A DNA stretch of 64,000 bases from Paramacrobiotus metropolitanus (Eukaryota > Tardigrada > Eutardigrada > Parachela > Macrobiotidae), in the NCBI RefSeq assembly GCF_019649055.1, contig NW_026570337.1:1-64000 (forward strand), in the 5' to 3' direction. This document shows positions 15,491-49,828 of the stretch, piece by piece. A program made the position numbers and the translations under genes. Each line of letters opens with the position of its first letter. Position 1 is the first letter of the stretch. The notes under the pieces were generated by a model that was not told where the DNA came from, did not search any database, and saw only the letters and a program-made list of their open reading frames with translations.

Positions 15491-15534
15491 ATCAGGAAAG
15501 TGCAGTAAAGCTAACGGCGATCTATGACATTTGA

Positions 15535-26078: not shown

Positions 26079-26082
26079 CATG
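26079..26082. repeat. target-site duplication CATG, left
   Basis: CATG directly before the 5' LTR; the same four bases directly follow the 3' LTR at 49829-49832. Ty3/Gypsy integrases make 4-6 bp duplications. Confidence 0.75.
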
Positions 26083-26656
26083 TGACGTGTGGGAGTAGGA
26101 TCACACGCCGGAGTGTACGTACGGATGCTGACTGTCCGCCTTCCACCTGCAACACAAACGAATATCTAGTCAATATCTACTGTGATTTGCTGTTCTCTTC
26201 TATTAGCGGTGTATGTGATGTCATAGCGCGAAGTCTATATAAGTTCTTGTCACTTCTAATATCGGGGATGAGTAGTCTGAGATTTGCTTCTGAGACTGCT
26301 TTTCTAATTACGATTTCCTAGCGTTGTGGACTGTGAAGTGCATCAATAAAGAGGCAGCAATACCTGTTCCTTCTGATGTACATGATCGTTCCCGGATTAT
26401 TGCATAGAATACAGGTTTGCTCGCGATACAATCGTCCTAGCTCTTTGTTGATCCTCATAGAAACTGCGACCGGAAGTTGTAGTTGGAGTGTTCCGGAGGG
26501 ATTCCTGAGTTCTCATGTTCCTGAGTCGTTGTCGTTTCCACCATAAGGATCTGTTACAGTTTGAGATGAGAGTTGCCTACCGATTGAGCATTACAGTCGT
26601 GGAAGAGTAAAGATTGTTCATGGAGCTCAAACCAGCGTGAACGCTTATACACGACA
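26083..26656 (+). repeat. 5' LTR
   Basis: 574 bp, TG...CA ends. The TATA box TATATAA is at 26236-26242 and the poly(A) signal AATAAA at 26345-26350, so U3 covers roughly the first 270 bp. Compared base by base with the 3' LTR I count 8 substitutions and no indels. Confidence 0.95.
26236..26242 (+). promoter_or_regulatory. TATA box of the 5' LTR
   Basis: TATATAA within AGTCTATATAAGTT, about 100 bp before the AATAAA of the same LTR. It is the likely promoter of the genomic RNA and is preserved in the 3' LTR (49408-49414). Confidence 0.6.
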
Positions 26657-27326: not shown

Positions 27327-27409
27327 TGGAGCGAATCTGAATTGCACAATCGCAATTTTCGAAGTTTACGGTAATCAGTAGCACAATAGTTACTGTACGT
27401 ACCGTAAGA

Positions 27410-30400
27410 ATGTCCAAACCAGAAAACAGGAACAGGGCGTTAAGCCAGGTTCCAGAAGATAAGGTCATAATTGGTCCATATGAAGCAACAGCGACACAAA
27501 CTAGATTTAAATTTAAACCGGATGAAATTCCGTTAGGATTAATGTACTTCGCCTTGAACTTGGAGGCACCCAATCAAACGAGAGCTAACTGTGGCAAGGC
27601 ATGGGTAGATTTCCAAGAGTTGGGGAAATCAGTGGATCCAAACAAAAAGGCTCCGTTTTATTATAATGGATCGTATGAGACTGAAGGATGCACTCCGGAA
27701 GTCTACCTGGATATTACCGATGATCAGTTAAATGAAGCAGTAAAGAAGGCCTATAAGTGGTTACATGAATACAAGAAGAATGTGGAAGATCGTAGACAAG
27801 CGGCCATCATTGCGTTTAAAGCAACTGCAAAAGTTAGAGTAAAACCAAAGGAGTCCGTTTCTGACGATCGACCCAAAAGAATGGTAGCGGCAAAGTCGAA
27901 AACTAACGAGAAAACAGAACAAGTTACTCGTAGTGAAGCAAATACAGAGCCGCTTAAGCTTGTAGAACCACTTTCAGAGGAAAGTTTGCTCGATAGAGAA
28001 CAACGTCTGCCAGACTTCGATATGAATGAATTGGATAGCCGATCAGAGGATGACACGCCTATTCACATGGCGTTTGGCGAAATTACGAATATAGCCCCGG
28101 AAGCTTCTGCAAGAAAGAAAAGCATTATGGGTGGCGCAATGTCTTTTCACCCGTCACAATTGAAATTACACGCTTTTGTCTCCGAGAAAGATTTCGAACA
28201 ACCAGATGAGGAATTTCTCACTAAGGCGAAGGAAGTCGACGAGCTACTGGCCCTTACGCAAACGGATCAAGATGTGGGATTAGTTGCCCGGAAGACGATG
28301 CCCGTGCTACTCCAGGGTCTGCGGACTTGGATAGCGACTACGAAACTAAAAGTCGACGAAATGGGGAGTTCCATGTCATTGGACGCTCGGGTTGATGCTG
28401 AAAGAAATCAAAAGTTAAAATTCCAAAATGATTTTAATGAAATGCGTATTAAATTTGAAAGCGAACAAACCGAAAATGACCGGTTGGCGAATGAATTACG
28501 CATCTCGGCTAATAATCTCTAGCGGCTAAGAGATGCAAATAAAAATGCACAAAACGCATTTGACAATATGAAAAATGATCATGATGGATTAAAGGACACG
28601 AACCGGCTTTTAGAAAAGCAGTTGGAAGATGTCCAGCGAGATCTAACACCAGCGAACGCTACTATCGACGGTTTTAAAGCACAAATGCTCCCTGATACGG
28701 CGAAGCAGGTTGTTGATTTAGGCCAGAAATTAACGAGAGCTCAGAGGGATTTAAATGCGGAAAAAGATGCGCACAAATTGACCAATAAAAATTTAGCGGA
28801 TGCGCAAAATCTGTCTCAGAAGCTTTCTAAGGATTAAGACGATGAAAAGAAGCGCGCCAAAGATAGAGAGGATACCCTGCAGCGGGATCTAACAAAGGCA
28901 AATTTACAGCTTAACAAACTGTCTACCGTTGGTCCGATGCATATCCCTAAGGAACAAGATGATATGGCACAAAAAGAAATTGAACGGCTCGAAGGATTAT
29001 TGGATACAGAAAAGGAGAATAATCGGAAAGTCCAGAAGGAGTTGAGCGATATTAAAAATAATAAAAAATGTAGCAATTGCGAGGAAGCTGTTAAAGCAAA
29101 GAAAGAAGCACAAGCTGCCGCCTTCGAGAAAGATCAAAACTGTAACCGACTGTATGAAGAGAACAAACAGCTCCGAGACGAATGGTACGAAAAGCAAGAG
29201 CAACTTACCAAATTGGAGGACGAATTTAAGCAAGCGTGCGGCGAGCTTCTCAAGCTTCGAAACCCAGATGTTGCTTTTGAAGGTGGTCAAAAACACTTTG
29301 AAAGAGAAGCGCCGGTAGCAACAGGAGATGTGTTGCGGCCTGCCCCACTTCCCCTGTTTGACCCCCAGAACTTCTCAACATCTAATGAACAGCCCTCAGT
29401 TGCTGCAACTAACCCGGCTAGCATTCTGCGGAAGCCCAGACAGGAATCACGGGTCGAATTTTCGGAAACCCATGGTATGCCCCGTTCGTCTTCAGAAAGT
29501 CAGATTCCCAAGGAAACGGTGCCGCCTAATCAAAAGAGAAACCGACCAACAGATTTACGCCAGGAGGTATTCAAAAGAACATCTGATGACGTGAATCGCC
29601 AGATGCGCAGATCTGAAAACAAGGACGGTTCTGATATTGAAAATGAATTGATGGATGATATACTAGCTGATGACGAACACCGTCGTCCTAGTAGCACAGC
29701 CAGTAATGAGTCCACGTCCAGAAATTTAAATTTAGAAGAATGGTTAATAAAGCAGACTCAAATATCGGACAGAACAGCACTTACACAAGAGAGTGTTGTT
29801 GAACTAATAGCAAAACTTGCGGACAAAGGAAATGATAAAGCCGAAGGCAGTATGAAACGTCTTACCTTTGATGATTCCCATCCCGAAAAAATCCAAAAGT
29901 GGCTCATAAACGTGGAACAGTGTCGAACCACAAATAACTGGAATGACGAGGTCACTTGCCGTAGAGTAACCGGCGCGTTCACGGGAGCGTCTTTCCAATG
30001 GTTCGAAAGGTTCTGGAAAGACAATAAAAGAAAGTCATGGTCCGATTTCTTTAAACCGGTAATTATTGAGCACTTTAGTGGCTCATTGTCCAAAGCGGAT
30101 ATACGCAGGAAAATGGAAACCGCAAACTTAATTTTTACGAGCCAGTTCGCGCTTACCTGGACAGTTTCCTTCCATGGTCCGAGGAGTTAAAAATTTCAGA
30201 TGAAGAGCAAGTTGAAGCACTCTTGGAGGGTGTACAAGATCATCGGCCGGCATGGTTTAGGGAAATCTATACTGCTTCCCCTAAAAATTACACAGAATTT
30301 GAAAAGAAGTTACAAGATTGTGAAAAATTATGGAAACGAATGAATAAAGAAAAGAAAGCGCCTGAATCGATTCAGAAGAATTTATCTGCAGAACCAAGAA

Positions 30401-31266
30401 GTGCGGGCAGTAATAATAATAATAATTCGAATTACGAAAATAGAGGCGGTCGAGGTGGTTCGTCTCAGAGAGGAAATTATTACCTGACTTGGGGAGGTCG
30501 TGGAAATTACGGGAACAATCGTGGAGGATACTCCCGTTCGTACACTGAAACAGTGATTCCGCAGCAGCAGAACTCTTCGGCTCCAGTTCAGCCTGTTCTG
30601 AATGTACCCCAGCCGCAGTTCGTCCTAATTCCGGTGTATCAACAACCGCAATTTGTCGAGCAACAACCGGTACAATTCGCGCAAACCTTTCAGCACCCTA
30701 TTCCGATGCAAGCTCCTATGCCTGTCCCCGTGCAGATGATAAATCCGATGATGCCGGTAATGCAGCCCCAATTTCAACAGCCGGTCCAAAACGTTCAAAA
30801 TTTCGATCCTCAGTATCAGCAAGACGGCCCTGTAAATAATAATAATAATAATGGCGGTTACAATTGTGGGAATTATCGCCCAAATAATAATTACCGTGGA
30901 AACAACAACCAAGGCGGTGGTTATAATAATCGTCAACAAAATCAAAATCAGAATCAAAATTATCGTCAAAATCAGCAGGCTAGTAACCAGCCTCCCTTTG
31001 ACGAGCGGAATATCCAGGAAGAAAAATGGCGCACAAACCGCGGGGTTGAGATTTGTTTCCGCTGCCACGGGTCACACCCTGCAGAAGGTTGTACAAACCA
31101 GTTTGTACTCCCTCGTCAGTATGAGCCTTCTGCAGATATGTTGGCTCGATACAATAATCCGCAGCAGCAGATGAATATGATGGAGTTGACTTACTGGCAG
31201 GCTTATCGTCGCCGACCCCTCAATGTCATAAAATGGAAGTCCAGGATTTCTCGCAATATCCGTTAG
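27410..31266 (+). pseudogene. gag: very large Gag, interrupted
   Basis: ATG at 27410. One frame runs to about 30,130 with an in-frame TAG (28520-28522) and TAA (28835-28837). A -1 frame change then leads into the frame that ends at 31266, about 1,285 codons in all; usual Gypsy Gags have 300-500. Order: an unrecognised N-terminal domain; a charged linker; a long coiled coil (about 28,400-29,260); a capsid-like Retrotrans_gag region (about 29,860-30,350, with WLINVEQC and FQWFERFW); RGG motifs; a Gln/Asn-rich low-complexity stretch (30,540-31,000); and a zinc knuckle CFRCHGSHPAEGC, CX2CX3HX4C, one residue shorter than the usual form. Gag packages the RNA into particles. The end overlaps the pol frame by about 34 bp, a -1 relation as in many retroelements. 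Confidence 0.85.
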
Positions 31267-31868
31267 CAGATCACGTGTGCCTGTTACCTACTCTGGACGC
31301 CCAGGCCTGGTACTCTGTGATCGACATAAACTATCAGAAAGTAAAAACTATGTTGGATACAGGTTCTAGCATTTCGGTTATGTCTCTGAAAATGGCGAAG
31401 GATTTAAAATTAAATATTCACCGGTGTCCCGATCATATCAAAGGCAGAGTTGTCCACACCGCTTATCAAGGAAGGCAACTAATTGAGCCGCTGTCGGTGG
31501 TAGTCACCATCCACGAATTTGGGATGGCGTTTGAGCACGCAATGTTGGTTAGTTCCACTTTCGATAGGGATCACATAGTTTTGGGTCTCGATTTCCTCGC
31601 GACCAAACCGTTTATTTTGGACATGAATACAATGACTTGGCGTCTCTCTCGCAGACCGCCCGGTGCGCCAGCATTTCTGCGTCGTGAAACTCACCTGATG
31701 TCAGATGTCATCAGATCGCACGATTTTAATCCTTTAATTCCCCCGGGAGTTAAGCTGTCATCTTCGATACCAGCGTTGATGTTGACCGAGCGAACTGGCG
31801 TCGCTAAAGAAGCAAAATTTGTTCCATACGAATCGGCACATTTAATTCTTGCTAAGGCTGATCCATAA
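31233..31868 (+). pseudogene. pol: pol segment: aspartic protease
   Basis: Starts in the -1 frame relative to the end of gag. The retroviral-type aspartic protease motif DTGSS is at residues 42-46 (MLDTGSSISVMSL), followed by the flap region and IVLGLDFLATKP near residue 115, as in Ty3/Gypsy proteases. The protease would cleave Gag and Pol. The frame is cut by a TAA at 31866-31868 but continues in the same frame to 32585, so the stop is a point mutation or a readthrough site. The start by ATG could be re-initiation instead of frameshifting; no canonical slippery heptamer is seen. Confidence 0.85.
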
Positions 31869-32585: not shown

Positions 32586-32701
32586 CGCCGATGGATAGAC
32601 CGCAGGATAAAAGGCTATTTCCCACAGAAAAAATGTTCCGTGATCCACAGTTCTGGAGAGAAACTCAGCAGATGTGTGTAGACAGCCGTATGTGATACAA
32701 G

Positions 32702-32995
32702 ATGTACAAGAAGCCGTCGCATGCAAATACCAACTATACCAAGTACGAAATTAATCGGCTGACCATTTGCGAAGGAATTCTGTGTAGAGTGCCCGATCAC
32801 TCTAGCGCATGTCCGAGGATTTATGTGCCACACCAATGGCGGCAGAAATTAATAGCCTGCTTTCATGAAATATTAATCCATAAGCAAGCGTACGGTCCGC
32901 GTGAGAAATTATATCCATATTTAGTAAAGTTGTTTTATTGGCCGGATTGCATAATTGAAATAGAGCGCTACGAGAAGAACTGTGATACGTGTTGA
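32702..32995 (+). pseudogene. pol: pol segment: extra integrase-type H2C2 module 1
   Basis: It shows all parts of the integrase N-terminal zinc domain: a beta-hairpin lead (ICEGILCRVP), YVPHQWR, then His-X4-His, LFYWPD, and Cys-X2-Cys (NCDTC); spacing H-X4-H-X33-C-X2-C. It lies between protease and RT, where Ty3/Gypsy Pol normally has no such domain. A TGA directly follows the last Cys in this copy (32993-32995); the frame then goes on to 33652. The spacing equals that of module 3 at the Pol C-terminus and differs from the real integrase domain. It may bind nucleic acid; the function is unknown. Confidence 0.75.
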
Positions 32996-33046
32996 AACTC
33001 TGTAAACGATCGTCGGTATTTTGAAACGCTAAAACGAAATGAGCAG

Positions 33047-34039
33047 TTGGCCGCTCAGGAAGCAACAGGAAAACGAAAAGTTACCTTTTCGCAGGATAAT
33101 CCAGCACCAGCAGGTGAATTTGAAAACGGTAGCTTTATCCCAGCTGACGATATGCAGCCAATTAATATTGGTCCTTGTCCGGTCTCCTATGAGGATAGAC
33201 AGGCGGAGAAGCAAAGAGTAATAACTTCTCAAACGACCAGTAACTCACCGCAAGAATGTGTGTTAACCAGTCAGCATATGTCAGATTTGGTACCTCCGAC
33301 AGTCAGGGAGACATATGATACGCCCACCAATGTAAATATTAACGAGCAATGGGCAATCTGGAACGAAATACAGAAACAGAAAGCGTTAAGAGAGTCTGCG
33401 GCGGTTAACTCAGCGCACCCTACCGTGGGAAACTGCGAGCCATCATTGGAAGGTTCGGGAAGAAGTTCACCCCGGCGTAAAAAGTCCAGTTACAGTCGAC
33501 GAATTAAGCGCGAATATGCAGAGCGTGAGGCGGCAAGCCAAATGTCCGCTGAAATGGTGCAGCCGCTCCCGGTACAGCAACCAGCGGCTAAAAACTTACC
33601 GAAACGGTCCCAGGATGTTCGGGAATCCACGGAAATTCCGGCGTGCGTGTAAACAAAAGATGCCATTGAGTTGGCGTACAGAGAAGCCCATCTGAAACAA
33701 GCTCAAGCACAGACGGAAGTAAATTTAGCGGAGCAAGATATTTATCGTTTTGAACCCGAACCGGGCCCAATCGATTGTTTTAAAATGGAGCTATTCCCGG
33801 CTTCACCGGTGATAATCCAGCCCCATTCGCAGGGAATTATTAGGGCAACGACGGCGATGTCAGACGAACAATTTATGGAATTCCAGGATGAGTATCTATA
33901 CACTCAACCATTTTTGTATGAAGAAAAAATACCGGAAACAAATAAAAATGCTGTGCTGCTTGATGGCGTTTTAACCCTTAACGAATATGGTGATTGTCGG
34001 GTCTGCGTCGTTATGTATCGGATAAGCCGTTGGTCTTAA
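33047..34039 (+). pseudogene. pol: pol segment: linker before RT
   Basis: Same frame as H2C2 module 1, with a TAA at 33650-33652. The first part is basic and Ser-rich (SPRRKKSSYSRRIKREY). The last part (about 33,780-34,010) resembles the beta-rich linker of Gypsy Pol between protease and RT (VIIQPHSQGIIRA, and in the next frame KPLVLNQQTNLGKVALV). A -1 frame change near 34,000 leads into RT. Confidence 0.65.
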
Positions 34040-35817
34040 ACCAGCAGACTAACCTGGGAAAAGTTGCACTTGTCGATGCGGTGTACCAAATGGACTCACT
34101 GGAGTTCCAACAGGGTTATCATGACGAGTCTTGTGGAGTTGCACGTGATGAGAAAGGCGTTCCGGTGCCTGAGAAAATAAATGAATGCGTAGCTATACAA
34201 CTTCAGCCAGCCGTCGCCGGCGTTGTCGATCCTGAAACAGAAGAAACGTTCACCAAAATTAAAGTCGGCGATATTTGCCCTAGTAAAGAAGAATTAAAAC
34301 AGATATTCTATCAGGCGAAGTCAGTTTTACCAACCAAAGCTAGTCCAGTTGGGCGTTGCACCATTTATGAGCATTCGGTGGACACAGGAACGAGTTTGCC
34401 AGTTCGAACTCCTCCGTACCGCACATCGTTTGAAGATAGGAAATGGCTCCAGGCTAAAACACAAGAAATGATTAAGGATGGTATCATTGAGCCGACTAAT
34501 TCGGCGTGCCGAAGTCCTATTTGTATAGTAAAAGAGAAGGATAAATCCCGGCGATTAACTGTTGACTTTCGTAAGTTAAATGAACGATTAATGGGCAGCA
34601 ATTATCCTCTACCTAGAGTCGATGACATTTTAAACGCCCTAGATAAAGCTACTGTATTTAGTATGATTGATTTGAAAAGTGGCTTTTGGCAAATAAAGAT
34701 TAAGCCGGAAGACCGTTGTAAAACCACGATGGTCGGAGAAGAGTTTACATTTCAATATAAAGTGTTGCCGTTTGGCATGAAGGATGCGCTTTCTGCCTTT
34801 CAGCGTGCTACGGACTTGACGCTTGCAAACATGAAATGGAGAAACGTGCTCGTATTTATAGACGACATTATCGTCTTTAGCAAAAACTTGGCTGATCACA
34901 TGCGGGATTTGCAGGAGCTTTTTCTGAGGCTCCAGGAGTGTGGTTGGACGATCAACCCCGAAAAAACGGAATTATTTGTCAATTCGATTACCTTTTTGGG
35001 ACATACTGTCGATCAATTCGGTATCAGCACAGATCCAGAGAAAATTCAGGCAGTCAAGGAATTCTGTCCCATAAAAGATAAAAAAGACATTTTAAGGTTT
35101 TTGGGCATGGTTGGGTATTATCGCCAATTCACCAAAAATTTTCAAGAAATTGCGGAACCGCTTCAAAAGCTTATTCCTAAAAAAGTCACCTTTGAATGGG
35201 GAACAGAACAGTGCCTCGCGGTTGAACAACTGAAGGAAGCATTGGTCACGGCGCCGGTCTTGGCCCGTTATGATCCAGAAGCCTTGTCTCGTGTTGTGGT
35301 GGATGCCAGCACTATCGCGGTGGGGGCAGTCCTTATGCAGTGTCCGCGGGATAAGCCGACGGATGTGGCGACGAACTGGAGACCTATCGCATATTTGAGT
35401 CGTAAATTAACAGAGACACAGAAAAGATTATACTTTCCCACTGAGCTTGAGGCTTATGCAGTTATTTGCGCTCTTAAGAAGTGGAAACATTATCTTTCGG
35501 ACTACCAGTTCGAAGTCCAAACGGACCATCAAGCGTTAGTTTTTCTGAATAATATGCGCGATGCCGCTGGTCGTCTCAGACGATGGGCGCTCTACATTCA
35601 GCAGTTCAATATTAAACCGGTTCACATCCCCGAAAAAGAGAACGTAATAGCTGACGCTTTAAGCAGAAATCCTGGAGAACAACCGGAACCCGACTCAGAC
35701 GACTCGGATATTGAATTTGACTATCGGCAGACTTACCCTTTCGCTGGTGATGCAGCAATGATTGAGTGTTGTTTTGCGATTCTGGAAGAGACTATGCGGA
35801 TATCCGCTTTGAGATGA
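33994..35817 (+). pseudogene. pol: pol segment: reverse transcriptase and RNase H
   Basis: About 600 residues without a stop. RT: RRLTVDFRKLN, then FSMIDLKSGFWQI (first catalytic Asp near residue 226), VLPFGMKDALSAFQ, and the FIDD box with VFSKN (288-296). The connection FLGHTVDQFGIS ... LRFLGMVGYYRQF is typical of Ty3/Gypsy. RNase H: VVVDAST, AYLSRKLT, ELEAYAVICALKKWKHYL and QTDHQAL keep the Asp/Glu/Asp residues. These copy the genomic RNA into DNA and remove the RNA strand. All visible catalytic residues are intact in this segment. The frame ends at 35817 by a -1 change near 35,790. Confidence 0.95.
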
Positions 35818-37049
35818 TGTCAACCGAAGTAAAAGCCATTTTTGAGGAAGACATGAAAGCCTTTGATGCGGACAAGGTGCAAAAGTTGATTACGGATGAT
35901 AAAGCCTCCTACTGGGCTGAAGAGCAGTCTTGAAACGCGCGGATTGTCCGATGGCGGTTGCTCCTGGAAAACAAAAAGGAAAAGATGTCAGAACATGAGC
36001 AGTTACATCTAAATAAGTTTGTGGTTAAACAGGGAGTCGTTTACTATAAGTTCGAATTAAATCGCAAAATCTACTACTGTATGTACGTGCCGGTACATTG
36101 GCGTCTTCAGTTTCTAAAGGATAATCACGACTCACCTCCGGCTGCGCATTTAGGAGTCTTGGCTACTTACAAACGGATGTATAAATACTTCTATTGGCCT
36201 CGGATGTTTGAGTCCGTGAAAAACTACTGTGCATCCTGTGCGGCGTGCCTTGCCCAAAATGTCCCAGCGACGGCACCGGCTGGCGCTTTGCAGTCAAACC
36301 CGACAGTTTCTCCTAGACTGGTGTGGGCAATCGACGTTGCCCCGGCTCTTCCAACGACGGAATCTGGAAACAAAAACATAATATTTGCCGTTGACTACGG
36401 GAGTAAATATATCTTGGCAGAAGCAGTTGAAAGAAATGATGCCGCCACTCTGGCACTATTCTTTCATCGGCAGATTTTAACGGTTTTTGGTATGCCGCTA
36501 CACATTACGGCGGATCGTGGCAGTAACTTCATGTCAGAGATGTTTCGGGAGCTTCTTGCTCTTGCTGGCGTTACCCATGCACCTACGGCGTCTGGTCACC
36601 AGCAGGGCAACGGTTTAGTTGAAAAACGTGTAGGAGAAATTAAAAAGGCATTGGCGAAATATGCTAATGAGCAGCAAAGTGACTGGGATATTTTCCTTCC
36701 GGCACTTTGCGCTGCCTTTAACAGTAAGGTTGTGGAACGAACGGGCCGCACACCATTCTTTATGATGCACGGCACCGAGATGCGTTTACCTGTGAATAAC
36801 TACCTCCCTTTTGAAGAAGACTTCGTCGTTCCCGCACACGTTTTCGTACAGCAGATGCAGCGTGGCCTCGGAGAGGCTTTGGACTTGGTGAACGCCGAGG
36901 AGTTCCGGCACAAACTGAAGGATAAAATCCGTTACGATGCGAATATTTCACACACCACATATAAAGCAGGAGATCAAGTTTTAGTGTACGTACTTCATAG
37001 AAAAGTGGGCAAAAATCCGTCTCTTATGCCCCGTTGGACCGCTGAATGA
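35814..37049 (+). pseudogene. pol: pol segment: integrase with canonical H2C2 and DDE core
   Basis: The frame runs from 35814 with one TGA near 35,930 and reads on to a TGA at 37047-37049. H2C2 module 2: YVPVHWR, His-X6-His, YFYWPRMF, then CASCAAC (about 35,990-36,250). DDE core: VWAIDVAP, TADRGSNF and GNGLVEKRV supply Asp, Asp and Glu. The C-terminal GPY/F-like part begins PRWT and is cut by the 37047 TGA just where GPY/F would stand, then continues with VHYVVKSN and HISRLKPY after it. Integrase inserts the cDNA into the genome. No chromodomain is seen. Confidence 0.93.
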
Positions 37050-37073
37050 GAAATCGTTCGCCCGTCGAGCCCT

Positions 37074-38078
37074 GTGCATTATGTAGTAAAGAGCAACAGA
37101 AGAGGAAATGTTAAAATCGACACTGTCCATATTAGTCGTTTAAAGCCCTATAATTTCTGCGACGTTGATACTATACTGCAAGATGAACAATCACCTAAAT
37201 TGCTCGACTGTGTGGAGAAGGAATGTCCCGATGAAATTGTTGAGGCGCCTGCGCCGCCGCCGGTAATACCGTCACCGGATACAGCATTGTCACCGTTGGA
37301 TGCGGAATACGCCCAGTACTTGGATGATCAGATGGAGAAAGTTCCGTTGTTGAAAACCCGTTCCGGGCGTGTGGTGAAACCTGTGGAGAGATTTGTCAAC
37401 CAAAATAACGATAAAAAGCGTAAAAGAGAACCGTCGGTTGATGTTAAAAAGCGGATAACCACAAATGATAGGTGTTCGGCCGTTCCGAGTGTATCCCAGC
37501 TTGGGGAGAATAAATCTATGCCTGCTGAGTCACCTGCAAGTAATACACCACTGATCACTTGTAACGCTATGGAAATCATACCGGTGCAGCCACTGAAAAC
37601 TTCGTCGGTAATTCCAGAAGAGAAAATCATTCCAGCCCCGGCTTGGGCACGTCCGATCGAGCAGTTTTGGCTTCAGGGCGTGATCTCAGACGATGCGTTG
37701 GATAAGCAGGAATTTTGGAAATATCGGCAGATGGAGTGTAGTGACACCATGATTTGGGACCAGGTGGTTGACGGAGATTGCAAATTGGAAGAGTCACCTT
37801 ATGCGGCTTGGCATCTTCCTTTAGTCCTGAAAATAAACGGCGTTATTTGCCATTATGGAGAAAAAGAGGATATCGTGAAAAGAATTCCCCGAACGTTCAT
37901 TCCGTTCCAGTGGAGAAAAATTCTCGCGGAATCGGTACATCGCCGATTGTTACATAAATATCGTAGTGCTATTTCGCCATATGATTACCTGTATACGCAA
38001 CTCCGATTTTTCTGGCCGGAAATGAAAAGTGAGCTACTCAAATTCACCAAAATTTGCACCCTGTGTAATTTAGATTAA
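37074..38078 (+). pseudogene. pol: pol C-terminal extension with extra H2C2 module 3
   Basis: Same frame as integrase. It first completes the integrase C-terminal domain (HISRLKPYNF), then has a Pro-rich and basic linker (KKRKREPS), a unique region (WLQGVISDDALDKQEFWKY), and last a third zinc module: a beta-hairpin lead, FIPFQWR, His-X4-His, RFFWPEM, Cys-X2-Cys (ICTLC), H-X4-H-X33-C-X2-C. It ends at 38078, four residues after the last Cys. Ty3/Gypsy Pol usually ends soon after GPY/F or a chromodomain, so about 280 extra residues with a zinc module are unusual. This could be part of a separately cleaved accessory protein. Confidence 0.75.
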
Positions 38079-38401
38079 CATGAATGAACGGCCATGTAAA
38101 TATGTATATTTGTTTCATTTTGAATTTTAAAATTATTGAAATGTTATCCTTTGACGCATTAAAATTACCGGGAAAATTCCCAAAAGTCTTGTACGTACAG
38201 AATTGGTGTGTACAGTTTCGCCATTGGCCATCCGCTGATGACGTAGGGTTCGTTGCTCCCGCACAGGCATAACCGGGGTGATCTGGGTCTGATGAGTAGA
38301 CCAAACGATCAAAGTCCCTGCCTGTAAATCAGTATCAGTTTCTTAAACTTGCGCATTCTTAGTTTTATTTATTAGCGTGTCCTTCCAGTATTTCTGTACT
38401 T
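38079..38401 (+). other. spacer between pol and cargo
   Basis: No ORF. It contains candidate 3' splice sites (for example CTTCCAG near 38,390), which fits a spliced subgenomic mRNA for the next gene, because that gene lacks an early ATG. Confidence 0.35.
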
Positions 38402-39268
38402 GTGCACTGTACTTTTTATCTTGGTAACTCACCGTACTTTGTAACGATTCGTCGTCCGACCTTGCCGCCTCATCGTTCGAATCAACAGGAGGAAAGCACT
38501 AGTTCCTCGGAGAGTTTGGTGCAAGTTGAAGTAGATATTCCTGCGCCATTGAATTATGACCCTCATGTTGGCTGGCCAGAGACGTTCGAATGGACGGGGC
38601 GCATGGTTCACTGTGGTATTCCGCCGTCTCCACATGATTATGCACGTGGAGCACAAGGAGATATTCCCCCATCTGGCCTGCAACAATGCCCGTACGATCC
38701 TGACAGCGAGTACATTGTGTTGCATCCGGACACACGCCTGCGTTTCCGTGGCAGGATCTTCCATAACGGGTCCCAGATGTCTGTGGACAAGTATAATCGT
38801 TTTGTTCACACGTTGGACATTGAGCGCAGCGAGGCACATTACGCTTTACTTCGTTACCTGCGTGCGGATTTTCACCAGGAGTGGCTCCTTGGACAAATCA
38901 TCTGTGAGCTCCGCCGGAACCATGGCATTAATATGGTGCGAAATCCTGTGCAGCTGTTGACAGCGATGAATTACGCACCGGGGGATACTGGAGATCGTGG
39001 AGCTATAGTTACTGTGCAGGATGTCTACAATCACCATGCACATGATCCAGTTTCCGATGTTGATACGCACCTGCAGTGGGAAGCGGAGCAGCGTTTTCAA
39101 GATGCGACGGCTCGCCGCTGGCGGAATTTGCAGCAAGTCCGCTGGTTGCCGGAGGAAGACCAGGAGAAGCGTAGCCCGGGCAGATTGGATGCCTCCATCG
39201 CTAAACGCCATCGTCCACGCCGTGATGATGATGATAATATGGGTGCTACTACGTATGGTTTCCTATAA
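38402..39268 (+). CDS. cargo ORF A, unknown
   Basis: An uninterrupted 288-codon frame that begins without ATG; the first in-frame Met lies about 65 codons in, so the N-terminus probably comes from splicing. It reads as a soluble protein with an acidic, Ser-rich start, a middle region with WPETFEWTGRMVHCG and LRFRGRIFHNGSQMSV, a helical region (LDIERSEAHYALLRYLRADF), and a basic tail AKRHRPRRDDDD that could be a nuclear signal. No signal peptide or transmembrane helix, so it is not an env-like gene. No family recognised. It is the only long cargo ORF without a break. Confidence 0.6.
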   Translation: MHCTFYLGNSPYFVTIRRPTLPPHRSNQQEESTSSSESLVQVEVDIPAPLNYDPHVGWPETFEWTGRMVHCGIPPSPHDYARGAQGDIPPSGLQQCPYDPDSEYIVLHPDTRLRFRGRIFHNGSQMSVDKYNRFVHTLDIERSEAHYALLRYLRADFHQEWLLGQIICELRRNHGINMVRNPVQLLTAMNYAPGDTGDRGAIVTVQDVYNHHAHDPVSDVDTHLQWEAEQRFQDATARRWRNLQQVRWLPEEDQEKRSPGRLDASIAKRHRPRRDDDDNMGATTYGFL

Positions 39269-39844
39269 ATAGACTTTATTGCAAGGTTGGCTTTTTACGT
39301 CCTATGATTCCTTAACTGCCACCTTTTTCTATGATGTAGTGCTGTTTAATAGCTGCAAGTGGCCTTTCTTCGTTTCTAAATGTTCTGTACAGATCCTCAA
39401 TTTGTGGTTTCTACAATTACCCTTTTGGCATAGTGTTACGCTGTATAAACGGTACGGCATTGTGGCTTACCGATAGATTCGTGGGATTCAGGTTTTGTCG
39501 TTCGATAATAAATCTGATGGAATTAGTCCTAAGCGTTTATTTTAAATTGCGATTCCATGAAAAACCCCGTGAAAACATCTAAAATAATCATCATCGAGCG
39601 TAAACCTTATAGCCTGTCAAAAAAAATCGTTTTCATGCTGTAACGCGCAGAAAATGACAGTCGCTGTGCCGACCGCCCGTATGTTACCAAATGTTAGGGC
39701 ACTGCCAGTTTGGGGCACACAGCTGTGTCCGGTTTGCAGATATGGTGTCAGCAGTTCACGTCTAATCGAGTTATTGTCATTTCTGCGGCTTTAGATTCTC
39801 TAAATTAAAACCTTCACTTCTTTTGCGTTTACCTAAGACCATCT

Positions 39845-40489
39845 CGTCTTTATGATGGATTATTTCAAAGGCAGTTTTGCTACAAAGGTAGTTTCGGCCG
39901 CATTATTTCGGACGAGTTTGCGGAGAAACTACGTTTGGAAGAACCTGAAAAGTATGAAATGCTGGTTAATTACGCGGAGGATGAGATCCGCGCAGATCAG
40001 ACGGAGTTTTTCTACGTCCGTCGCGGAATTTGGGCCGGACCCAAAACTCTGGTGTGCCGTGCTGCAGCAGATCGCATCCGTGCAGATCTGGGTCTTCCGC
40101 CATCGCCTCCCAGACCAGAATCTCCGCGTGTGCGTCGCCGCCGCGAAATGGCCGAATAGAACAAGCGCATGGAAGATGAACTCTGCTGTGTGGAATGCGA
40201 GAATAATGGACGAGGTTTTTGTGGTCGCATTTGATGGTCCACACCCAAAGAAACTGTCCCGAAATTGTGGGGATCTGGCAGCCTGGATGATTGAAAAGGA
40301 CCTGATCCAGACTTTGCGGACTGGTGGAATGAGCAGAGCCATATGTTGGACCCTATTAAGATCCGGCCAGTAGAGATGCTCTGGGAGAATGTGAAGTCCC
40401 CGATCCCGGAAACACCAAAGAAGAAGCGTAAGCACGTTGTTGTTCAGCGTCATGCTTTGCGCGGAATTCCCTATAATTATTGGAATTGA
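39845..40489 (+). pseudogene. cargo ORF B, unknown, three in-frame stops
   Basis: One frame from about 39,845 to the TGA at 40,487-40,489 reads as protein throughout but holds TAG at 40,157-40,159 and TGA at 40,232-40,234 and 40,292-40,294. Features: FGRIISDEFAEKLRLEEPEKYE, an Arg-rich linker PRVRRRREMAE, a Cys-containing CCVECENNGRGFCGRI, and near the end a classical nuclear localisation motif PKKKRK. The last residues are PYNYWN. No frameshift is needed, only the three point stops. Start unclear. Possibly a nuclear protein; function unknown. Confidence 0.5.
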
Positions 40490-41047
40490 TGTTTTGCACC
40501 ATCGGCCCTTTGAGTATTTTGTAAACGGCAACGTGGATAGATTTTGTACAGGCCTTTTTAAACGTTGCTCTTTTGCGTGCAGATGATTCTCTTTGCACTG
40601 TATGTTTTCACGTTTAAATGCTACTTTTAAAACGGATGATGTCTTCCTTCAAGTTGTGATAAGCTTGTTATGGCTTTGTTCCTTATGAATACAGTAGTGG
40701 CTTGATAATTTTACTGATGCTGCTGTATTTTCAAGGTTTTAAACGGTGTCGTGACATAAAATGAAACAGCAGAAAATACAGATTTGACGGTAGTATTAGA
40801 GAATTACCCAATGCGCCCCTTCCCGAGGAGGCAATACCGTTAACGTTAACTTCGCAGCCAGCGAAGTCCAATAATTTGTCACTGCCACCAGTGAGCGGTC
40901 ACCCATTCTACAAGCGTTCTGAATGTAACCCAGTAGAGTTTTTTTTTATGATTACCGTTTTATTTCTGTTCTTGCTTTATTTCCTCTCGTTTCATTCCCA
41001 GTTTCTTTTCCCTGATACTCTGGGATAGTTTCTGTGATAACTTCACC
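40490..41047. other. spacer, no gene seen
   Basis: No supported ORF between cargo ORFs B and C. A run of nine T occurs near 40,941. Confidence 0.4.
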
Positions 41048-41230
41048 ATGGCTCCTCCTGCTCGTGAGACAAAGAAAGCAGCCAAGCATGCGCTGGAAGA
41101 CCGTGTTACGGAGTGGACGACGAGTGTGGCGCAGAAGATGGCTCAACGCACTGAGGCCCAGCACCGCTTCGAACGGAAGAGAATTGCTGTCAAGGAGGCT
41201 GTTTCCAAGCTTCCGTTGAAGAATCCGTAG
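41048..41230 (+). CDS. cargo ORF C, small basic protein
   Basis: 60 codons from ATG, uninterrupted. Rich in Lys, Arg, Ala and Glu (ETKKAAKHALEDRV ... RFERKRIAVKEAV), predicted mostly helical, possibly coiled coil. The ATG context (CACCATGGC) is good. Its size and charge resemble small nucleic-acid-binding accessory proteins, but there is no family match. Confidence 0.45.
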   Translation: MAPPARETKKAAKHALEDRVTEWTTSVAQKMAQRTEAQHRFERKRIAVKEAVSKLPLKNP

Positions 41231-41780
41231 TGTTTCTTTGACTCGATGGAGTCTCTGAGTGGGATTCTGCCTTATCTTGCCTTATTTGTACGGTAATCAG
41301 TTGGACGTTTTGGCCTTGGTTTGTCAAGCATGTTTGCCTTATTAGTTTAGTTATTCAGTTGCAGCTCGGCTGTATATTCCTTTGCGATCTCGTATTTCTC
41401 GGGTCTCGTTTAGAATTTTATCTCTTAGTTTGTGCGTACAGTTTGTGTTATTTTCAGTTTTGTGCTGTAAGCTCTTGCTGTGCTGTTTTCCTTGTGGATA
41501 ACATTATGGCTATTGCGTTGTATCCTTTCGTTCGTTCAAACGTTTGATTATTATGTGGATTGCGAATTTAATAAAGTTCATGTAGTGGAGGCTGCCTGTG
41601 CTGTTTTTTGACAAATTTGGGATGCTGTAGCCTGCAACCACACAATCGTCCGCTTACGTTAGTTGTCCCCTGCTATTCATGAAGTCTCTCACTCGGGCAG
41701 GTGGCCGATACGCACAGTGCTCATTTCTCGTTACGAGCAGCGGTACGTCTTAGGCGCTGTAATTATTTTGCATTTTGCGT
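41231..41780. other. spacer before the tRNA-like array
   Basis: No gene supported; a short hydrophobic ORF (41,359-41,547) looks accidental. Confidence 0.35.
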
Positions 41781-43490
41781 AGAGCGACCCCGCTGGTATA
41801 ATAGTGGCTTCCGTTGTGGCTTCGTTATAGGTCGGAGGTTCTAGTCCACATAAAAACGCAATTTTGTAAATAAACTTTCTTTTTGGTGTTATTCCTCAGG
41901 TTTTTATATTTTTGTGTTTGGGGTTAAAATAGTACGAATTGTGGGTTACTCTACATTGAGAGCGGTTGCTACGAAGGTGGAAGGTTTCATGGTGTATCGG
42001 TACGATATTTTATAACAGTAGTTTTTGTCCTTGCCTTGTGTGGCGTAGTGGACTAGACAAGAGGACAATACTAGGCGACTCTCCGCTAGATCCTGGGTTC
42101 TACCCTGTAACAATTTTAAAAGCATTTTCGTAAACCTTCTTTTTCGGGTTTATATTTTTCGAACGCATATGTTTCACGTATTTTGTATTGTGACGCTAAT
42201 TTTATCTTAGTTATCAGTGAGCGGCGCACAGGCGTACAATCCTTAGCGTTTTGTTTACTTAGATTTCGTCGAAAGATACCGTAGTGTAGTGGTCGAGTGG
42301 CCAATTTCTGTGACCACCCGGTTGATTTAAGGCCTTGGGTTCGAAACCCTTACAATTAGTGCACTTTCCGTTTAGACCTTCTTTTTCGATTTTATATTTT
42401 TGTGGCCTTGAAAATTGACATTTCCATCTTATTACTTCGAATTTTGCTATCACAATGGACGAGCAGCAATGTTACATTTAACGATTCCGTACGGCCGTAT
42501 TGTTATATAACTCGTAGCGTTTCCGGTGTCATGTTCCAACTGGTTATAGTGGAGAATATCCCGTGGTGTAGTGACTGGACAGAAGAACCACACTCACCAG
42601 CTGTCTTCAAGGTCTAGAGTTCAAACCTCTAAAATTAAATTGTGTAGTTTGAAAACCTTCTTTTTGGGTTTCATACTTTCACAATAATGCTGGCTGATAC
42701 GCTGCCTATGATGAATACAATTTTACGATCATTTCTCATGAGTGAATTCAAAATTAACGCCGTAGAATGCCGTAGTATGGTGCTCTGCACTGTTGAACCA
42801 CAACAACGGGCAAAGTTGAAGGTTTCAGTTTTGAAACCCCTTAAAAGTTAAATTGCATTTTCTGAAAACTCACTTTTTGGTTTTTATATTTTTATTGGCG
42901 CTTTACCTAAGGTATTGGCAGCGGTGATCCGAATTTTGTGATTGCTACAAAAGAGCGGTCTTATAGAATCGAGTGGGCGGTATGCTGTTGTTTGTATATT
43001 AATAATAATATTCCGTGGTTTCGTTGTTTGTCGTCGGACAATTTGTAGAGTAGTGGCCGGGTAAATAATCAAGGAAACTACTTGTCGATTTTAAAGTCTC
43101 GGTTCGAACTTATTTGATTTAATGTCCTATTTTCTCAACCTTTTTGATATATAGTGTGCAGCACTTGTAGTATAGCGGCTAACTTGCAGTGCCACAAGAA
43201 GGAACTGGTCTACGCTTTAGAATGGAAACTCTTTGAATTTGTACTTACAAACTTTATTTTTCGGTTCTCCTCTTCTTGAATGCTAAACTTAGCCATTTGA
43301 CGCACTGTTATATTTGATAAACGACATGTAGCGCTTCCGGTGTTTAGAATATTATTCGGAATTGTGGCATAGCTACGCTGGCGTAGGGGCAAAAGTAGGA
43401 TGTAGTCCTCCAGCTAGATCCCAGGTTCAATTTCATGCTAAGACCAATTTTGTTAGTTAGAAAAATTCTTTTTATATCTTCCTGGTCTTC
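41781..43490 (+). repeat. diverged array of about eight tRNA-like Pol III-type units
   Basis: Units start near 41,790, 42,040, 42,278, 42,558, 42,765, 43,032, 43,162 and 43,362. Most have an A-box-like start (GTGGCGTAGTGGAC, CCGTAGTGTAGTGG, CCGTGGTGTAGTGAC, TTGTAGTATAGCGG and similar). 45-75 bp on comes a B-box-like segment (GGGTTCTACCC, GGGTTCGAAACCC, GAGTTCAAACCTC, CGGTTCGAAC). A shared tail AAACCTTCTTTTT-GGTTTATATTTTT follows, whose T run could terminate Pol III. Units are well diverged from each other, so the array is old or fast evolving. Spacing is 130-280 bp. No clean cloverleaf is seen, so these are tRNA-like, not standard tRNA genes. Confidence 0.65.
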
Positions 43491-43851
43491 GCTGATTCTG
43501 GTCTACGTGGATGTTCTGTATTTTGGAAATTAAATTAGTGCGGACTACAGCTTTTCTTATCGGTGTACTACGTCTGATTGCGCACAATGTCTATGGTTAA
43601 TTTCTTTTATCCGTTTCCTGTAAAATTATTATGCACGGCAGTTTTACCCTTTTATTAAAAATTCGTGTTAAATCCAATTGACAAGATCTGTACGACAAGG
43701 AGAATTAAAAATTACATGAGCATCGGTCCCGGAGTTATCCAAAGTTAAACTCAGATCCAGAATTAAAATACAACCAGGATATAGAAAAACAACCGGCTGA
43801 ATTACCAACAAATTATTTAACAGCCGGGGGAGACGCACAAAACGCCGTGAC

Positions 43852-45183
43852 TTAATCCAAATCCACGATTTTCTTGGCATTGTTGATGTTGGCCATGCGT
43901 TGCTCCAAAGCCTCGCGCACATACTTGATGTGGTCAATTCCGGTATACACGCGCGCCTTTAGAGTGTTGACCAGCGCTTTACAGTTGTTCGTGATGTTCT
44001 GCTCGCTCTCGACCATCTTCAGCAGTTTGTCGATGCCTTCAGTGTTGTCAGCCTTATCGTCGCCGGGTTTTTCAGCTTTTACCCTGGGCTTTTCGGTTTT
44101 CGTTTCTTTGCGTTGTTCGCTCTTTTAGGGTGCCACATATCGCGGGCGAGCATTCATTTCCTTCAGTTGACTCAATTTAATGATTGGCTCCCGTTTGATG
44201 CGAGCATCCTTGCTGGAGCGAACAAGCAAATTGGCTCCAGTGGTGTTGTTTTTGGCCGGATCGATGGCATCCAAACGCTCCATGACTCCGTCCACAATTA
44301 ATTCGACATCTTCGCCAACATAGCCGAAGCTGGCGTCGGTGACGCCTTGTTCCAGTTCTTTTCCGTTCTTTTCTATCTTCAGAGTGGCCATCTTCACATC
44401 TGCAAGTCACTGTGGTTATTGCATTGAGAACACAGAGAAAAGTACTGCACACTTGCAAGCAAAAGTATAGCCACAATTTCTGGGTTTCGTTATTTGGAAA
44501 TTCTACAAACTTACTGATTGTTTGAGCCAGCGTGTCGCACAGACAACAACCGCGAATGCTGCAAGCCACAGATCAATGCAACTGTGCACGTACAAACTCC
44601 CGTAAACCATCACGATCTGCTTCTTCTCCAAGAGCCGATCTAGTCCGCGGTTGAACCAGTATTCGTAGTTCTCTAGCTGCAGGTGATAAGTTTCGTAAGC
44701 CCATTGTTGAATCTCCGGGCGTGACATGGCATAACGCGCGTGATAAAGAATTGCCCGGATCATGCATCGCAATTTGCTATAGGTGTCCACTAGCTTAACC
44801 TCGCGGCTGTTATAAACCTCTTCAGCGACTTCTAGAACGAATCGCCCGTCGCGCGCCATCTTTTTCGGTAGAATTCCAGCGTTAATGGCGTCTTCTAGAA
44901 ATACTTCAACGCGATCCGCAGTGAAATCCGAGTTCAAATCCTGCACGAACTGCTTTATAGAAGCGAGATCCACATAATACCCAGTAATATCCGCTTCAAG
45001 AATGCAGGCATGTGCGGCTGTGTGCATTGCCAGTTGACGACGGCGTGCTGCGGTTTCGTTCTCCGCAAATGGCGCAGCCATTGCAAACTGCACGGATTCC
45101 CGCGTGCGTTCTTTCCAGTAGGTAGCGTGCTCCACAGCGTCAGTCTCTGGCGATGGCGATGGCTCTCCGGGCTGTCCAGACAT
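43852..45183 (-). pseudogene. antisense cargo gene E, spliced, one in-frame stop
   Basis: ATG at 45183 (MSGQPGEPSPSPETDAVEH) opens 220 clean codons of a helical, acidic protein ending near a GTAAGT donor at about 44,512. An acceptor TTGCAG at about 44,404 precedes a second protein-like frame (MATLKIEKNGKELEQGV ... ) that reads to the stop at 43,852 through one TAA (44,125-44,127). The end is Lys/Glu-rich, then ALEQRMANINNAKKIVDLD. The two phases differ by one base, so either a base is missing or these are two genes. It lies opposite to gag-pol inside the retrotransposon. An antisense intron survives retrotransposition because the genomic RNA cannot splice it. No family recognised. Confidence 0.55.
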
Positions 45184-45774
45184 TATGAAATGAGTTGGTT
45201 AAAATATAATATAGGATAAGGAAAGAACAGAAATAAACAAAGAAAACCATCACCACAGAAGAATAAAATATTGCAGGGTTCGTCGCTTTTAGTGTTATGA
45301 GGGAACAGCTGAAGTTTTCTGCGCTTACGGTGCGGCATTTAGGTCGCCTGTCACCCGCTCCGAGGCGCGAGTCCGTGCGGAAACTATGCAGTTTCCGGTC
45401 TGTGTTTTGAATGTTTCCCAGACGCGTCTTCTGCGTTTTACTCTTAACAATTTGTATGTTTTTCTTTAGAACTTAAAGCGCTGTTGTCTCAAAATTTTAT
45501 TTTTACGGCTAATTATCAAAATCGATGGCAAGAGATCGATCAGCTTTACGGCTGTATTTTGTCTGTAAAAGTGCGAAAACTGTGGAATTTTAGGCTTGTC
45601 GCCTGTCACCCGCCATTTGGTTGGTTGCCTGTATTCTTTGTTTCCGGTTTCGGTGCCAGCCTGTTGTGATCAGCTGTGTTCTGCACTTGCTGTTTTTGCT
45701 ATCTCAGTTATTGTAGTTCCTGGATTGTCAACATTTTAGTTTTCTATTTCCAAAACCTATTGTTAGTATTAAAA
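45184..45774. other. divergent promoter region of cargo genes E and F
   Basis: 590 bp between the ATG of gene E (minus) and gene F (plus). No ORF of interest. Geometry suggests promoters for both directions; no TATA box clearly recognised. Confidence 0.35.
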
Positions 45775-47263: not shown

Positions 47264-47783
47264 TGCTACATCATCTTACATCTTGTGTTGTTATTTTGGT
47301 ATTTCTGTTGTTATTTGTACGCAAGCAGAGCCGCCTTTTATTTTTGTATTCTATCGACTGCTTTGGATCACTTATTCCGGAAATACCTTTCGTGTTTTCA
47401 ATTTTTGAGGAATTGTGCGCTGCTTAATTTCTACTTTTATTTTCATTTTTCGATGCGCTATTTAGAGTCAATGAACTGGTCGTAACCGAATCTTCCGTTC
47501 TGCCTAGATCTGATCTGATCTTCTGATTAATTTGAATTAAAGGATATAGCGCGATGCGCTGATTGGTCGTTTCTTTTACCTGTGGAATTTGCCGCACTTT
47601 AAACTTTCGCTCTGGCAGACCGGTATAAAATCACTGGCGTGTAGCGTGCAGAAATCGGCATTGTGGATTTTTCGTTTCGGCGCAGTAGCGTGTACAATTT
47701 TTTGCTCTTTCGGTGTCCGATTTTAACGCTAGTCTCTCGTTACCTTCCTGCGTTAAAGGTCATTAGTTTTCTTGATTCTGGGC
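47264..47783. other. spacer between cargo genes F and H
   Basis: No gene supported; T-rich. Probably the 3' end of F and promoter of the next gene. Confidence 0.35.
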
Positions 47784-48565: not shown

Positions 48566-49247
48566 CATTGAATAACCTTTCGATGATCTGTTATTGTTTT
48601 CCTTTTGATCTCACCCGAGTTACTGGTTGTTGTGTTATTTTGTGAATCATTCTGATGCACTGAAGCCGTATTTGTTATTTCTTGTTGTTATCCTTTTACT
48701 GTTTATATTTTGTCTCGGCTTATTAGTTATTTGTACTCGTGATCTTTATACAACTATGATTGGCTTGTTTGTTATTGTTGATTGATCTTGTTGCTGTATA
48801 GTGTAGTATGTAGTATTCGAGAATTCGTAAGAATATTACTGGTTCATGATCGCGGTTCGTGCTCTCTTTTATGGATTACTCTCGTGTTGACAATTACATA
48901 TTCACAATTCTTCAATTTTCACAATTCTCCGATTTTACCATCAATAAAGCTTTATGCCGTATGCTGTACATACACTCATACCACTCTGAAACGGCACATG
49001 CAATATCAGTAGTTCATAGTTTGCCTCTTTGATCCTTGGACCTCCGCCCTGCCAAACCCGTGGCCTTCCGGATGCCGCTTCGCCGAGGATTCCACACACT
49101 CTCTGGAATCGCGGCGTACAGTCACATTGGGCATCGGATGGACACGTGGATTGTGCGGTGGATCGGGATCGGGATGGACGCAAGTGCACAATCGCACTGG
49201 GATGTTGCGGGATGGATTGTTTATATTGGCACGGCCAAGCATCGTTC
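48566..49247. other. 3' untranslated region of the element
   Basis: No supported gene. The last 240 bp before the 3' LTR are GC-richer, with GATCGGGATCGGGATGGA-type short repeats. Confidence 0.4.
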
Positions 49248-49254
49248 GTGGGGG
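49248..49254 (+). other. short polypurine-like tract
   Basis: GTGGGGG directly before the 3' LTR, the expected place of the plus-strand primer. It is short and has one T. Confidence 0.5.
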
Positions 49255-49828
49255 TGACGTGTGGGAGTAAGATCACACGCCGGAGTGTACGTACGGATGC
49301 TGACTGTCCGCCTTCCACCTGCAACACAAACGAATATCTAGTCAATCTCTACTGTGATTTGCTGTTCTCTTCTATTAGCGGTGTATGTGATGTCATAGCG
49401 CGAAGTCTATATAAGTTCTTGTCACTTCTAATATCGGGGATGAGTAGTCTGAGATTTGCTTCTGAGACTGCTTTTCTAATTACGATTTCCTAGCGTTGTG
49501 GACTGTGAAGTGCATTAATAAAGAGGCAGCAATACCTGTTCCTTCTGATGTACATGATCGTTCCCGGATTATTGCATAGAATACAGGTTTGCTCGCGACA
49601 CAATCGTCCTAGCTCTTTGTTGATCCTCATAGAAACTGCGACCGGAAGTTGTAGTTGGAGTGTTCCTGAGGGATTCCTGAGTTCTCATGTTCCTGAGCCG
49701 TTGTCGTTTCCACCATAAGGATCTGTTACAGTTTGAGATGAGAGTTGCCTACCGATTGAGCATTACAGGCGTGGAAGAGTAAAGATTGTTCATGGAGCTC
49801 TAACCAGCGTGAACGCTTATACACGACA
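49255..49828 (+). repeat. 3' LTR
   Basis: 574 bp, 8 differences from the 5' LTR by eye (about 98.6% identity). TATATAA at 49408-49414, AATAAA at 49517-49522. Followed by CATG, the right target-site copy. Confidence 0.95.

What the first reader, a model, noticed from the sequence alone, without database searches (positions are those of the whole stretch)
32702..38078. Three integrase-type H2C2 zinc modules in one Pol
The pattern [YF][IV]P-x2-WR ... His-His ... [FY][YF]WP ... Cys-X2-Cys, with a beta-hairpin lead, occurs three times: between protease and RT (32,760-32,992), at the normal integrase place (35,990-36,250), and at the very C-terminus (37,800-38,070). Modules 1 and 3 share the spacing H-X4-H-X33-C-X2-C, while the canonical one is H-X6-H-X29-C-X2-C, so 1 and 3 may be a separate duplicated pair with its own job. 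I know of no Gypsy Pol with this layout.
Basis: partly seen in the sequence, partly recalled or inferred. Interest (0 to 1): 0.88.

Follow-up and report, generated by a model that had tools for sequence, protein, structure and literature searches.

The report
Spare integrase zinc modules in Pol
A jumping gene in this genome carries two extra copies of the zinc-binding front part of its own integrase, one before and one far after the working enzyme, and selection keeps them intact even in a relative that seems to have lost the integrase, so they probably do a separate job.

Summary
Modules 1 and 3 are paralogues of the integrase N-terminal region, NED-like helix plus HHCC zinc domain (hhalign M1-M3 2e-29, M1-M2 1e-11, M3-M2 1e-9). 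They sit in a 23.7-kb Ty3/Gypsy element (LTRs 98.6% identical, CATG target duplication). M1 is not a quirk of this copy: it lies between protease and RT in five families of one Gypsy lineage of this 170-Mb genome (A, A', C, D, E), turns up in further families (B, D2, F), and is absent from the two conventional Gypsy elements checked. M1 and M3 form one clade (100/99.9) apart from all six M2 rows. In family A, M1 is as constrained as the integrase core (median dN/dS 0.011 against 0.015); M3 0.057, linker 0.20. M3 was found in A, A' and a few diverged relatives. A non-autonomous family (13 loci; one scanned in full) lacks RT, RNase H and integrase but keeps M1 and a C-terminal module without zinc ligands, both constrained. 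So the modules probably have a job separable from integrase catalysis. Best guess: docking modules for LTR DNA/RNA or integrase; that is inferred. Structural support is weak (one low-confidence model, no fold search). New variant of a known kind.

The parts
26083..26656 (+). 5' LTR (TG...CA, 574 bp), target duplication CATG at 26079-26082, primer-binding-site-like tggcgccc from 26657
   Evidence: blastn self-match 98.6% over 575 bp; ends read directly
27341..31266 (+). gag region, several broken frames in this copy
   Evidence: ORF list; blastp matches to the gag region of a family B copy
31323..31601 (+). aspartic protease domain
   Evidence: PF13975 E 1.3e-7
32642..32992 (+). Module 1: NED-like helix plus H-X4-H-X33-C-X2-C, between protease and RT; frame interrupted by stops in this copy
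34531..35010 (+). reverse transcriptase core
   Evidence: PF00078 E 2.8e-30
35197..35607 (+). RNase H
   Evidence: PF17917 and PF17919
35895..36260 (+). Module 2: canonical integrase NED and HHCC domain, H-X6-H-X29-C-X2-C
   Evidence: PF17921 61.4 bits; spacing
36312..36596 (+). integrase catalytic core
   Evidence: PF00665 E 2.3e-11
37050..37700 (+). integrase C-terminal part and fast-evolving linker
   Evidence: median dN/dS 0.013 for codons 1-60 and 0.198 for codons 61-200
37701..38078 (+). Module 3: NED-like helix plus H-X4-H-X33-C-X2-C, ends three residues before the stop
   Evidence: model with beta hairpin and helices, pLDDT 61.9
49255..49828 (+). 3' LTR, target duplication CATG at 49829-49832

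Best explanation
Modules 1 and 3 are non-catalytic paralogues of the element's own integrase N-terminal region (NED plus HHCC domain). SUPPORTED BY SEQUENCE: they share one origin that is separate from the canonical integrase modules of the same lineage; M1 was in place between protease and RT before families A, A', C, D and E split; M3 has a narrower range and most likely came later from the M1 side (weakly supported); the non-autonomous part of family B carries its own C-terminal copy without ligands; purifying selection keeps the modules. INFERRED: they work as docking modules, not as enzymes. M1, cut out of Pol or attached in front of RT, holds RT, integrase and the element's nucleic acid (LTR DNA ends or genomic RNA) together. 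M3 gives integrase a second NED-NTD on a flexible tether, where chromoviruses carry a chromodomain, for multimerisation or target/host-factor contact. The non-autonomous family would use its modules to recruit helper enzymes or stay packaged with them. Zinc stabilises the fold in most families but is dispensable in some.
For: Homology: hhalign and HMM results; M1+M3 one side of a branch 100/99.9, and all modules of this lineage apart from six conventional integrases of the same genome 99/96. Distribution: PR, M1 and RT in that order in A, A', C and D and E; module also in B, D2 and F. Not found in two conventional Gypsy elements that have PR and RT (best E 0.72). Constraint in family A: median dN/dS M1 0.011, M2 0.014, integrase core 0.015, M3 0.057, linker 0.198. 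Separable job: L062 has PR, M1, a doubled pre-RT domain and a C-terminal module, and Pfam finds no RT, RNase H or integrase core. All 13 close matches to that C-terminal module lie 2.5-2.9 kb from 13 of the 17 B-type M1s; three other B-type M1s have RT and integrase core downstream and no such module listed. Pooled pN/pS is 0.045 for 11 of the 13 non-autonomous M1s (43 synonymous, 10 non-synonymous segregating) and 0.054 for 10 of the 13 C-terminal modules. [quoted passage not shown] an integrase-type HHCC domain is functional in ZBTB11 (PMC5384227, passages).
Against: No function was tested. The D and D2 M1 rows and the B C-terminal module lack ligands yet are constrained, so zinc is not always the point. 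More diverged pairs in E and F have pN/pS up to 0.51 and 0.32. Non-autonomous and autonomous B-type M1s intermix (L095 is nearest L090), so exchange with autonomous copies could keep M1 clean there; the C-terminal module was not seen in autonomous copies. dS in family A is near or above 1. The M3 rows for dN/dS were filtered for intact motif and frame (24 of 30), which favours low values. The tree has long branches meeting; M3 lying inside M1 is only borderline (AU p 0.048 against M1 as one clade). Position in an element is unknown for the D2 and F rows, and one F row (L082) groups with M3 (91/91). In ZBTB11 point mutants of each ligand abolish activity, but deleting the N-terminus does not abolish rescue (figure legend). 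The structure model is low-confidence (pLDDT 61.9, pTM 0.50). Only one non-autonomous copy was scanned in full; the census lists are capped.
Confidence: 0.5

Rival explanations
1. M1 is what remains of an entire integrase that moved in front of RT, as in Gmr1-type Gypsy elements (PR-IN-RT-RH order), and lost its core; M3 is a second trimmed copy. The retained end kept an old integrase role.
For: Gmr1 elements usually have integrase upstream of RT (PMC8220671, passage), the same slot as M1. M1 is integrase-derived.
Against: No integrase core was found by Pfam in the M1-to-RT pieces scanned (L063, L085). The normal integrase is still in the normal place. M1 goes with this lineage's own integrase rather than with the six conventional ones sampled; no Gmr1 sequence was in the tree.
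Confidence: 0.2
2. M3 is an integration-targeting domain, taking the place of the chromodomain at the integrase C-terminus, while M1 is a nucleic-acid-binding module for packaging; the two have different jobs.
For: M3 sits at the very end of Pol behind a fast-evolving linker. M1 and M3 evolve at different rates (median dN/dS 0.011 and 0.057). No M3 was found in the integrase-bearing frames of the C and E copies scanned.
Against: No target-site analysis was made; no host partner is known; M1 and M3 share one origin.
Confidence: 0.3
3. The extra modules are neutral relics of duplication.
For: Some rows lost ligands, and diverged pairs in families E and F have pN/pS up to 0.51 and 0.32.
Against: Median dN/dS of 0.011 (M1) and 0.057 (M3) among copies whose linker is at 0.198; retention in non-autonomous copies.
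Confidence: 0.03
4. The modules serve only as rigid spacers or cleavage-site presenters in the polyprotein, with zinc and nucleic-acid binding irrelevant.
For: Constrained modules without the full ligand set in families D, D2 and the B C-terminus.
Against: Ligands are present in the A, A', B, C, E and F rows, and in 30 of 30 family A M1 slices.
Confidence: 0.12

Closest known systems
Integrase N-terminal region of Ty3/Gypsy elements and retroviruses (PF17921 Integrase_H2C2; NED plus NTD of Ty3 and PFV integrase)
   Same: Same sequence family and order: helix, beta-hairpin lead, HH, [FY]WP, CC
   Different: M1 and M3 have no catalytic core behind them; spacing HX4HX33; M1 lies before RT, M3 at the end of Pol
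Gmr1-type Gypsy elements
   Same: Integrase-derived sequence between protease and RT
   Different: Gmr1 has the integrase itself upstream of RT; here only the N-terminal region is there and the normal integrase is kept downstream
Chromoviruses (integrase C-terminal chromodomain)
   Same: Extra domain at the integrase C-terminus behind a linker
   Different: The extra domain is a paralogue of the integrase NTD, not a chromodomain (position in chromoviruses recalled; a chromodomain in Ty3 is named in a figure legend of PMC8632968)
ZBTB11, GIN1 and NYNRIN HHCC domains
   Same: Integrase-type HHCC kept in proteins where it serves, or may serve, something other than element integration; shown to be functional in ZBTB11 (PMC5384227, passages)
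   Different: Host genes with HX6HX29 spacing; here inside Pol and repeated within it

Membership tests
Ty3/Gypsy LTR retrotransposon (the element) | Two LTRs with target duplication | tested here: met
   98.6% identical LTRs, TG...CA, CATG duplication
Ty3/Gypsy LTR retrotransposon (the element) | Order PR-RT-RH-IN | tested here: met
Integrase_H2C2 / integrase NTD (M1 and M3) | Profile match | tested here: met
   Below Pfam cut-off alone; clear by family profiles; L063 M1 above cut-off
Integrase_H2C2 / integrase NTD (M1 and M3) | HHCC ligands | tested here: met
   30 of 30 M1 and 27 of 30 M3 family A slices; not met in the D and D2 M1 rows and the B C-terminal rows
Integrase_H2C2 / integrase NTD (M1 and M3) | NTD three-dimensional fold | tested here: inconclusive
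   Helices, hairpin, three further helices in an M3 model of pLDDT 61.9; no model of M1; fold search not run, machine busy
Functional integrase (M1 or M3 as an enzyme) | Adjacent DDE core | tested here: not met
   M3 ends three residues before the stop; no rve between M1 and RT in L063 and L085; the window stretch 32996-33990 was not scanned on its own
Gmr1-type Gypsy | Integrase core upstream of RT | tested here: not met
   The core found lies downstream of RNase H
Zinc-binding protein | Zinc bound | not testable with these tools
   Needs purified protein

The most novel reading that the evidence does not exclude
This Gypsy lineage has evolved a new kind of Pol product: a catalysis-free integrase N-terminal module that acts in trans, so that non-autonomous elements without RT and integrase use it to capture the helper's enzymes or its nucleic acid, a parasite-of-parasite docking system built from duplicated integrase parts.
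Probability: 0.22. Interest if true: 0.8.

Novelty: new variant of a known kind. Interest (0 to 1): 0.62.

Why it matters
The integrase N-terminal domain is usually studied as part of integrase. Here evolution has copied it, moved it within Pol, kept it across divergent families and kept it where the enzymes seem to be gone. That offers a natural separation of the domain's binding role from catalysis, and a handle on how non-autonomous LTR elements exploit their helpers.

Tried and rejected
Neutral relic: rejected by dN/dS. Chance motif: rejected by the shuffle count and profile scores. One-copy oddity: rejected by the many loci. M3 as a copy of M2: not favoured, since M1 and M3 share a branch at 100/99.9 and 100/99. 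Whether M3 of A/A' and the B C-terminal module share one origin is open (AU p 0.057), and M1 as a clade with M3 outside is only borderline rejected (p 0.048).

Led nowhere: the protein search (10 candidates, none significant) and viral contigs (89 pattern matches, no relative), so occurrence outside this genome is untested. PDB sequence search with the M1 profile gave one chance hit (E 0.94), with M3 only PFV integrase at E about 0.5; M2 found Ty3 (2e-7) and PFV integrase. No LTR pair was found for the family B copy between the 6 kb fetched before and the 3.7 kb after its frame. Literature: ten answered searches. Four asked about this layout directly: 70 and 140 returned no paper, 85 one unrelated paper, 16 a list of 20 of 2,577 with no sign of the layout in titles and abstract starts. 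The library holds only open-licence papers, so absence from print is not shown.
Full report
WHAT IS THERE. The window holds one LTR retrotransposon of 23.7 kb. Its LTRs (26,083-26,656 and 49,255-49,828) are 98.6% identical, run TG...CA and are flanked by the 4-bp duplication CATG. Pfam finds an aspartic protease, RT, RNase H, integrase HHCC domain and integrase core in Gypsy order. Several frames of this copy are broken by stops and frame changes; related loci have long open frames.

THE THREE MODULES. M1 lies between protease and RT, M2 at the normal integrase place, M3 at the end of the frame. M1 and M3 read H-X4-H-X33-C-X2-C, M2 H-X6-H-X29-C-X2-C. As single sequences M1 and M3 score 21.6 and 16.8 bits with PF17921, under the curated 25.5. 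Profiles decide: M1 against M3 2.1e-29, M1 against M2 1.3e-11, M3 against M2 1e-9; a profile of 11 diverse rows finds window M3 at 1.6e-17 and M2 at 9.1e-12. The homology includes the helix upstream (FW..QQ..D..W), in the place of the NED of Ty3-type integrases. A model of M3, made from an alignment of the three window modules, shows helices, a beta hairpin and three further helices, but at pLDDT 61.9 and pTM 0.50; it could not be fold-searched, and M1 was not modelled.

HOW WIDE. each returned 150 matches (capped), mostly M1 but some M3 and C-terminal modules. Grouped by identity they give family A (this element; 60 loci whole or nearly so and 3 split over two frames), A' (11 loci at 64-72%), B (17 at 94-100%) and C (6 at 58-62%), D and D2, and a looser set labelled E and F. 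Layout was checked in one or two copies each: PR, M1, RT, RNase H, M2 and integrase core in C (L063, L114), D (L064) and E (L085), and in A' (L061: PR by Pfam, M1, M2 and core by profile, RT by census). For D2 and F only the module was fetched. Two conventional Gypsy elements of the same genome have PR and RT but no M1 (best E 0.72). M3 was found in A and A' and, weaker, at a few more loci; C364 shows M1 (57%), RT, integrase core (51%) and M3 (34%) in that order. No M3 was found in the integrase-bearing frames of the C and E copies scanned; the D copy runs off the fetched stretch.

ORIGIN. In a tree of 37 rows, all 19 rows labelled M1 and 6 M3-type rows stand on one side of a branch with 100/99.9; with the lineage's own M2 they stand apart from six conventional integrases with 99/96. 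Leaving out two long rows keeps this. So the extra modules share one origin separate from M2. That M3 lies inside M1 is weaker: M1 as one clade with M3 outside is rejected at only p 0.048, and one F row of unknown position (L082) groups with M3 (91/91). A single origin of M3 and the B C-terminal module is neither shown nor firmly rejected (p 0.057). The tree program warns of long branches meeting.

SELECTION. Family A, median dN/dS: M1 0.011 (30 of 30 fetched loci), M2 0.014 and integrase core 0.015 (20 of 30; the rest out of register in the slice), M3 0.057 (24 of 30; the rest failed a filter for stops, motif or length), linker 0.198 (21 of 30). dS is near or above 1 in several sets, so ranks matter more than values; pooled pN/pS are 0.033, 0.032, 0.032, 0.139 and 0.279. 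The loci are the best-scoring ones of each search. Ligands in exact spacing: 30 of 30 M1, 27 of 30 M3 (one C to Y, one H to N, one cut by the slice), 22 of 30 M2 slices. Other families, M1 pairwise: D 0.12-0.27 (6 pairs), D2 0.30 (1 pair), C 0.03-0.20 (3), E 0.14-0.51 (6), F 0.32 (1). The D and D2 rows lack the full ligand set and are still constrained.

A NATURAL EXPERIMENT. The B copy L062 has a gag region, PR, M1, two copies of the domain that precedes RT in A', and a C-terminal M1-like module without HH and CC, and then stops; Pfam finds no RT, RNase H or integrase core in it. A census finds 13 close matches (94-100%) to that C-terminal module, each 2.5-2.9 kb from one of 13 B-type M1s. 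Three other B-type M1s (C80, C347, C292) have RT and integrase core downstream and no such module listed; the 17th (C76:385438) has neither listed. So autonomous and non-autonomous forms coexist. Among 11 of the 13 non-autonomous M1s pooled pN/pS is 0.045, among 10 of the 13 C-terminal modules 0.054. The M1 value could partly reflect exchange with autonomous copies, since L095 (autonomous) is nearest to L090; the C-terminal module, not seen in autonomous copies, is free of that doubt. Limits: the lists are capped and only L062 was scanned in full.

FUNCTION. Selection on a catalysis-free integrase N-terminus, also where RT and integrase seem gone, argues for a binding role. [quoted passage not shown] In ZBTB11 each ligand of an integrase-type HHCC domain is needed for activity, though deleting the N-terminus does not abolish rescue, and the paper links zinc coordination in integrase to multimerisation (PMC5384227, passages, partly cut). 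I therefore favour docking to LTR DNA/RNA or integrase, with M3 as a tethered second NED-NTD of integrase. None of this was tested.

KNOWN OR NEW. Gmr1-type elements usually carry the integrase before RT (PMC8220671, passage); here only its N-terminal region is there. Four searches of an open-licence library that asked about this layout found no report of it. Occurrence in other hosts could not be tested. I rate it a new variant of a known kind.

Noticed in passing
window 38079-49254: 11.2 kb between the end of Pol and the 3' LTR, parts of it shared with other loci at 65-88% DNA identity; five longer frames gave no Pfam match except a weak linker-histone one at 44506-45198 (-).
   Followed up: partly
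L062 (C46:272500-281400) and 12 further loci: Non-autonomous family with gag region, PR, M1, a doubled pre-RT domain and a C-terminal ligand-less module; no RT, RNase H or integrase core found in L062.
   Followed up: yes
G000 C1:1487459-1489688 (L083 covers the first): Three module matches within 2.2 kb with no RT or integrase-core hit listed there.
   Followed up: no
G000 C364:6300-11590 (-): A diverged locus with M1, RT, integrase core and M3 matches in the order of the window element.
   Followed up: no
G000 C265:53483-53659 and 54041-54217: Two equally scoring H2C2 matches 558 bp apart in one open frame.
   Followed up: no
L064, L071-L075: M1 of families D and D2 lacks part or all of the zinc ligands but remains constrained.
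   Followed up: partly
window 58610-59620 (-): Frame with protein kinase, weak HNOBA and guanylate cyclase matches, probably part of a host receptor guanylate cyclase gene.
   Followed up: no
window 6700-9229 and 15513-15639 / 52021-52161: Diverged repeats: 6700-7494 with 8420-9229 at 67%, and 15513-15639 with 52021-52161 at 75%.
   Followed up: no
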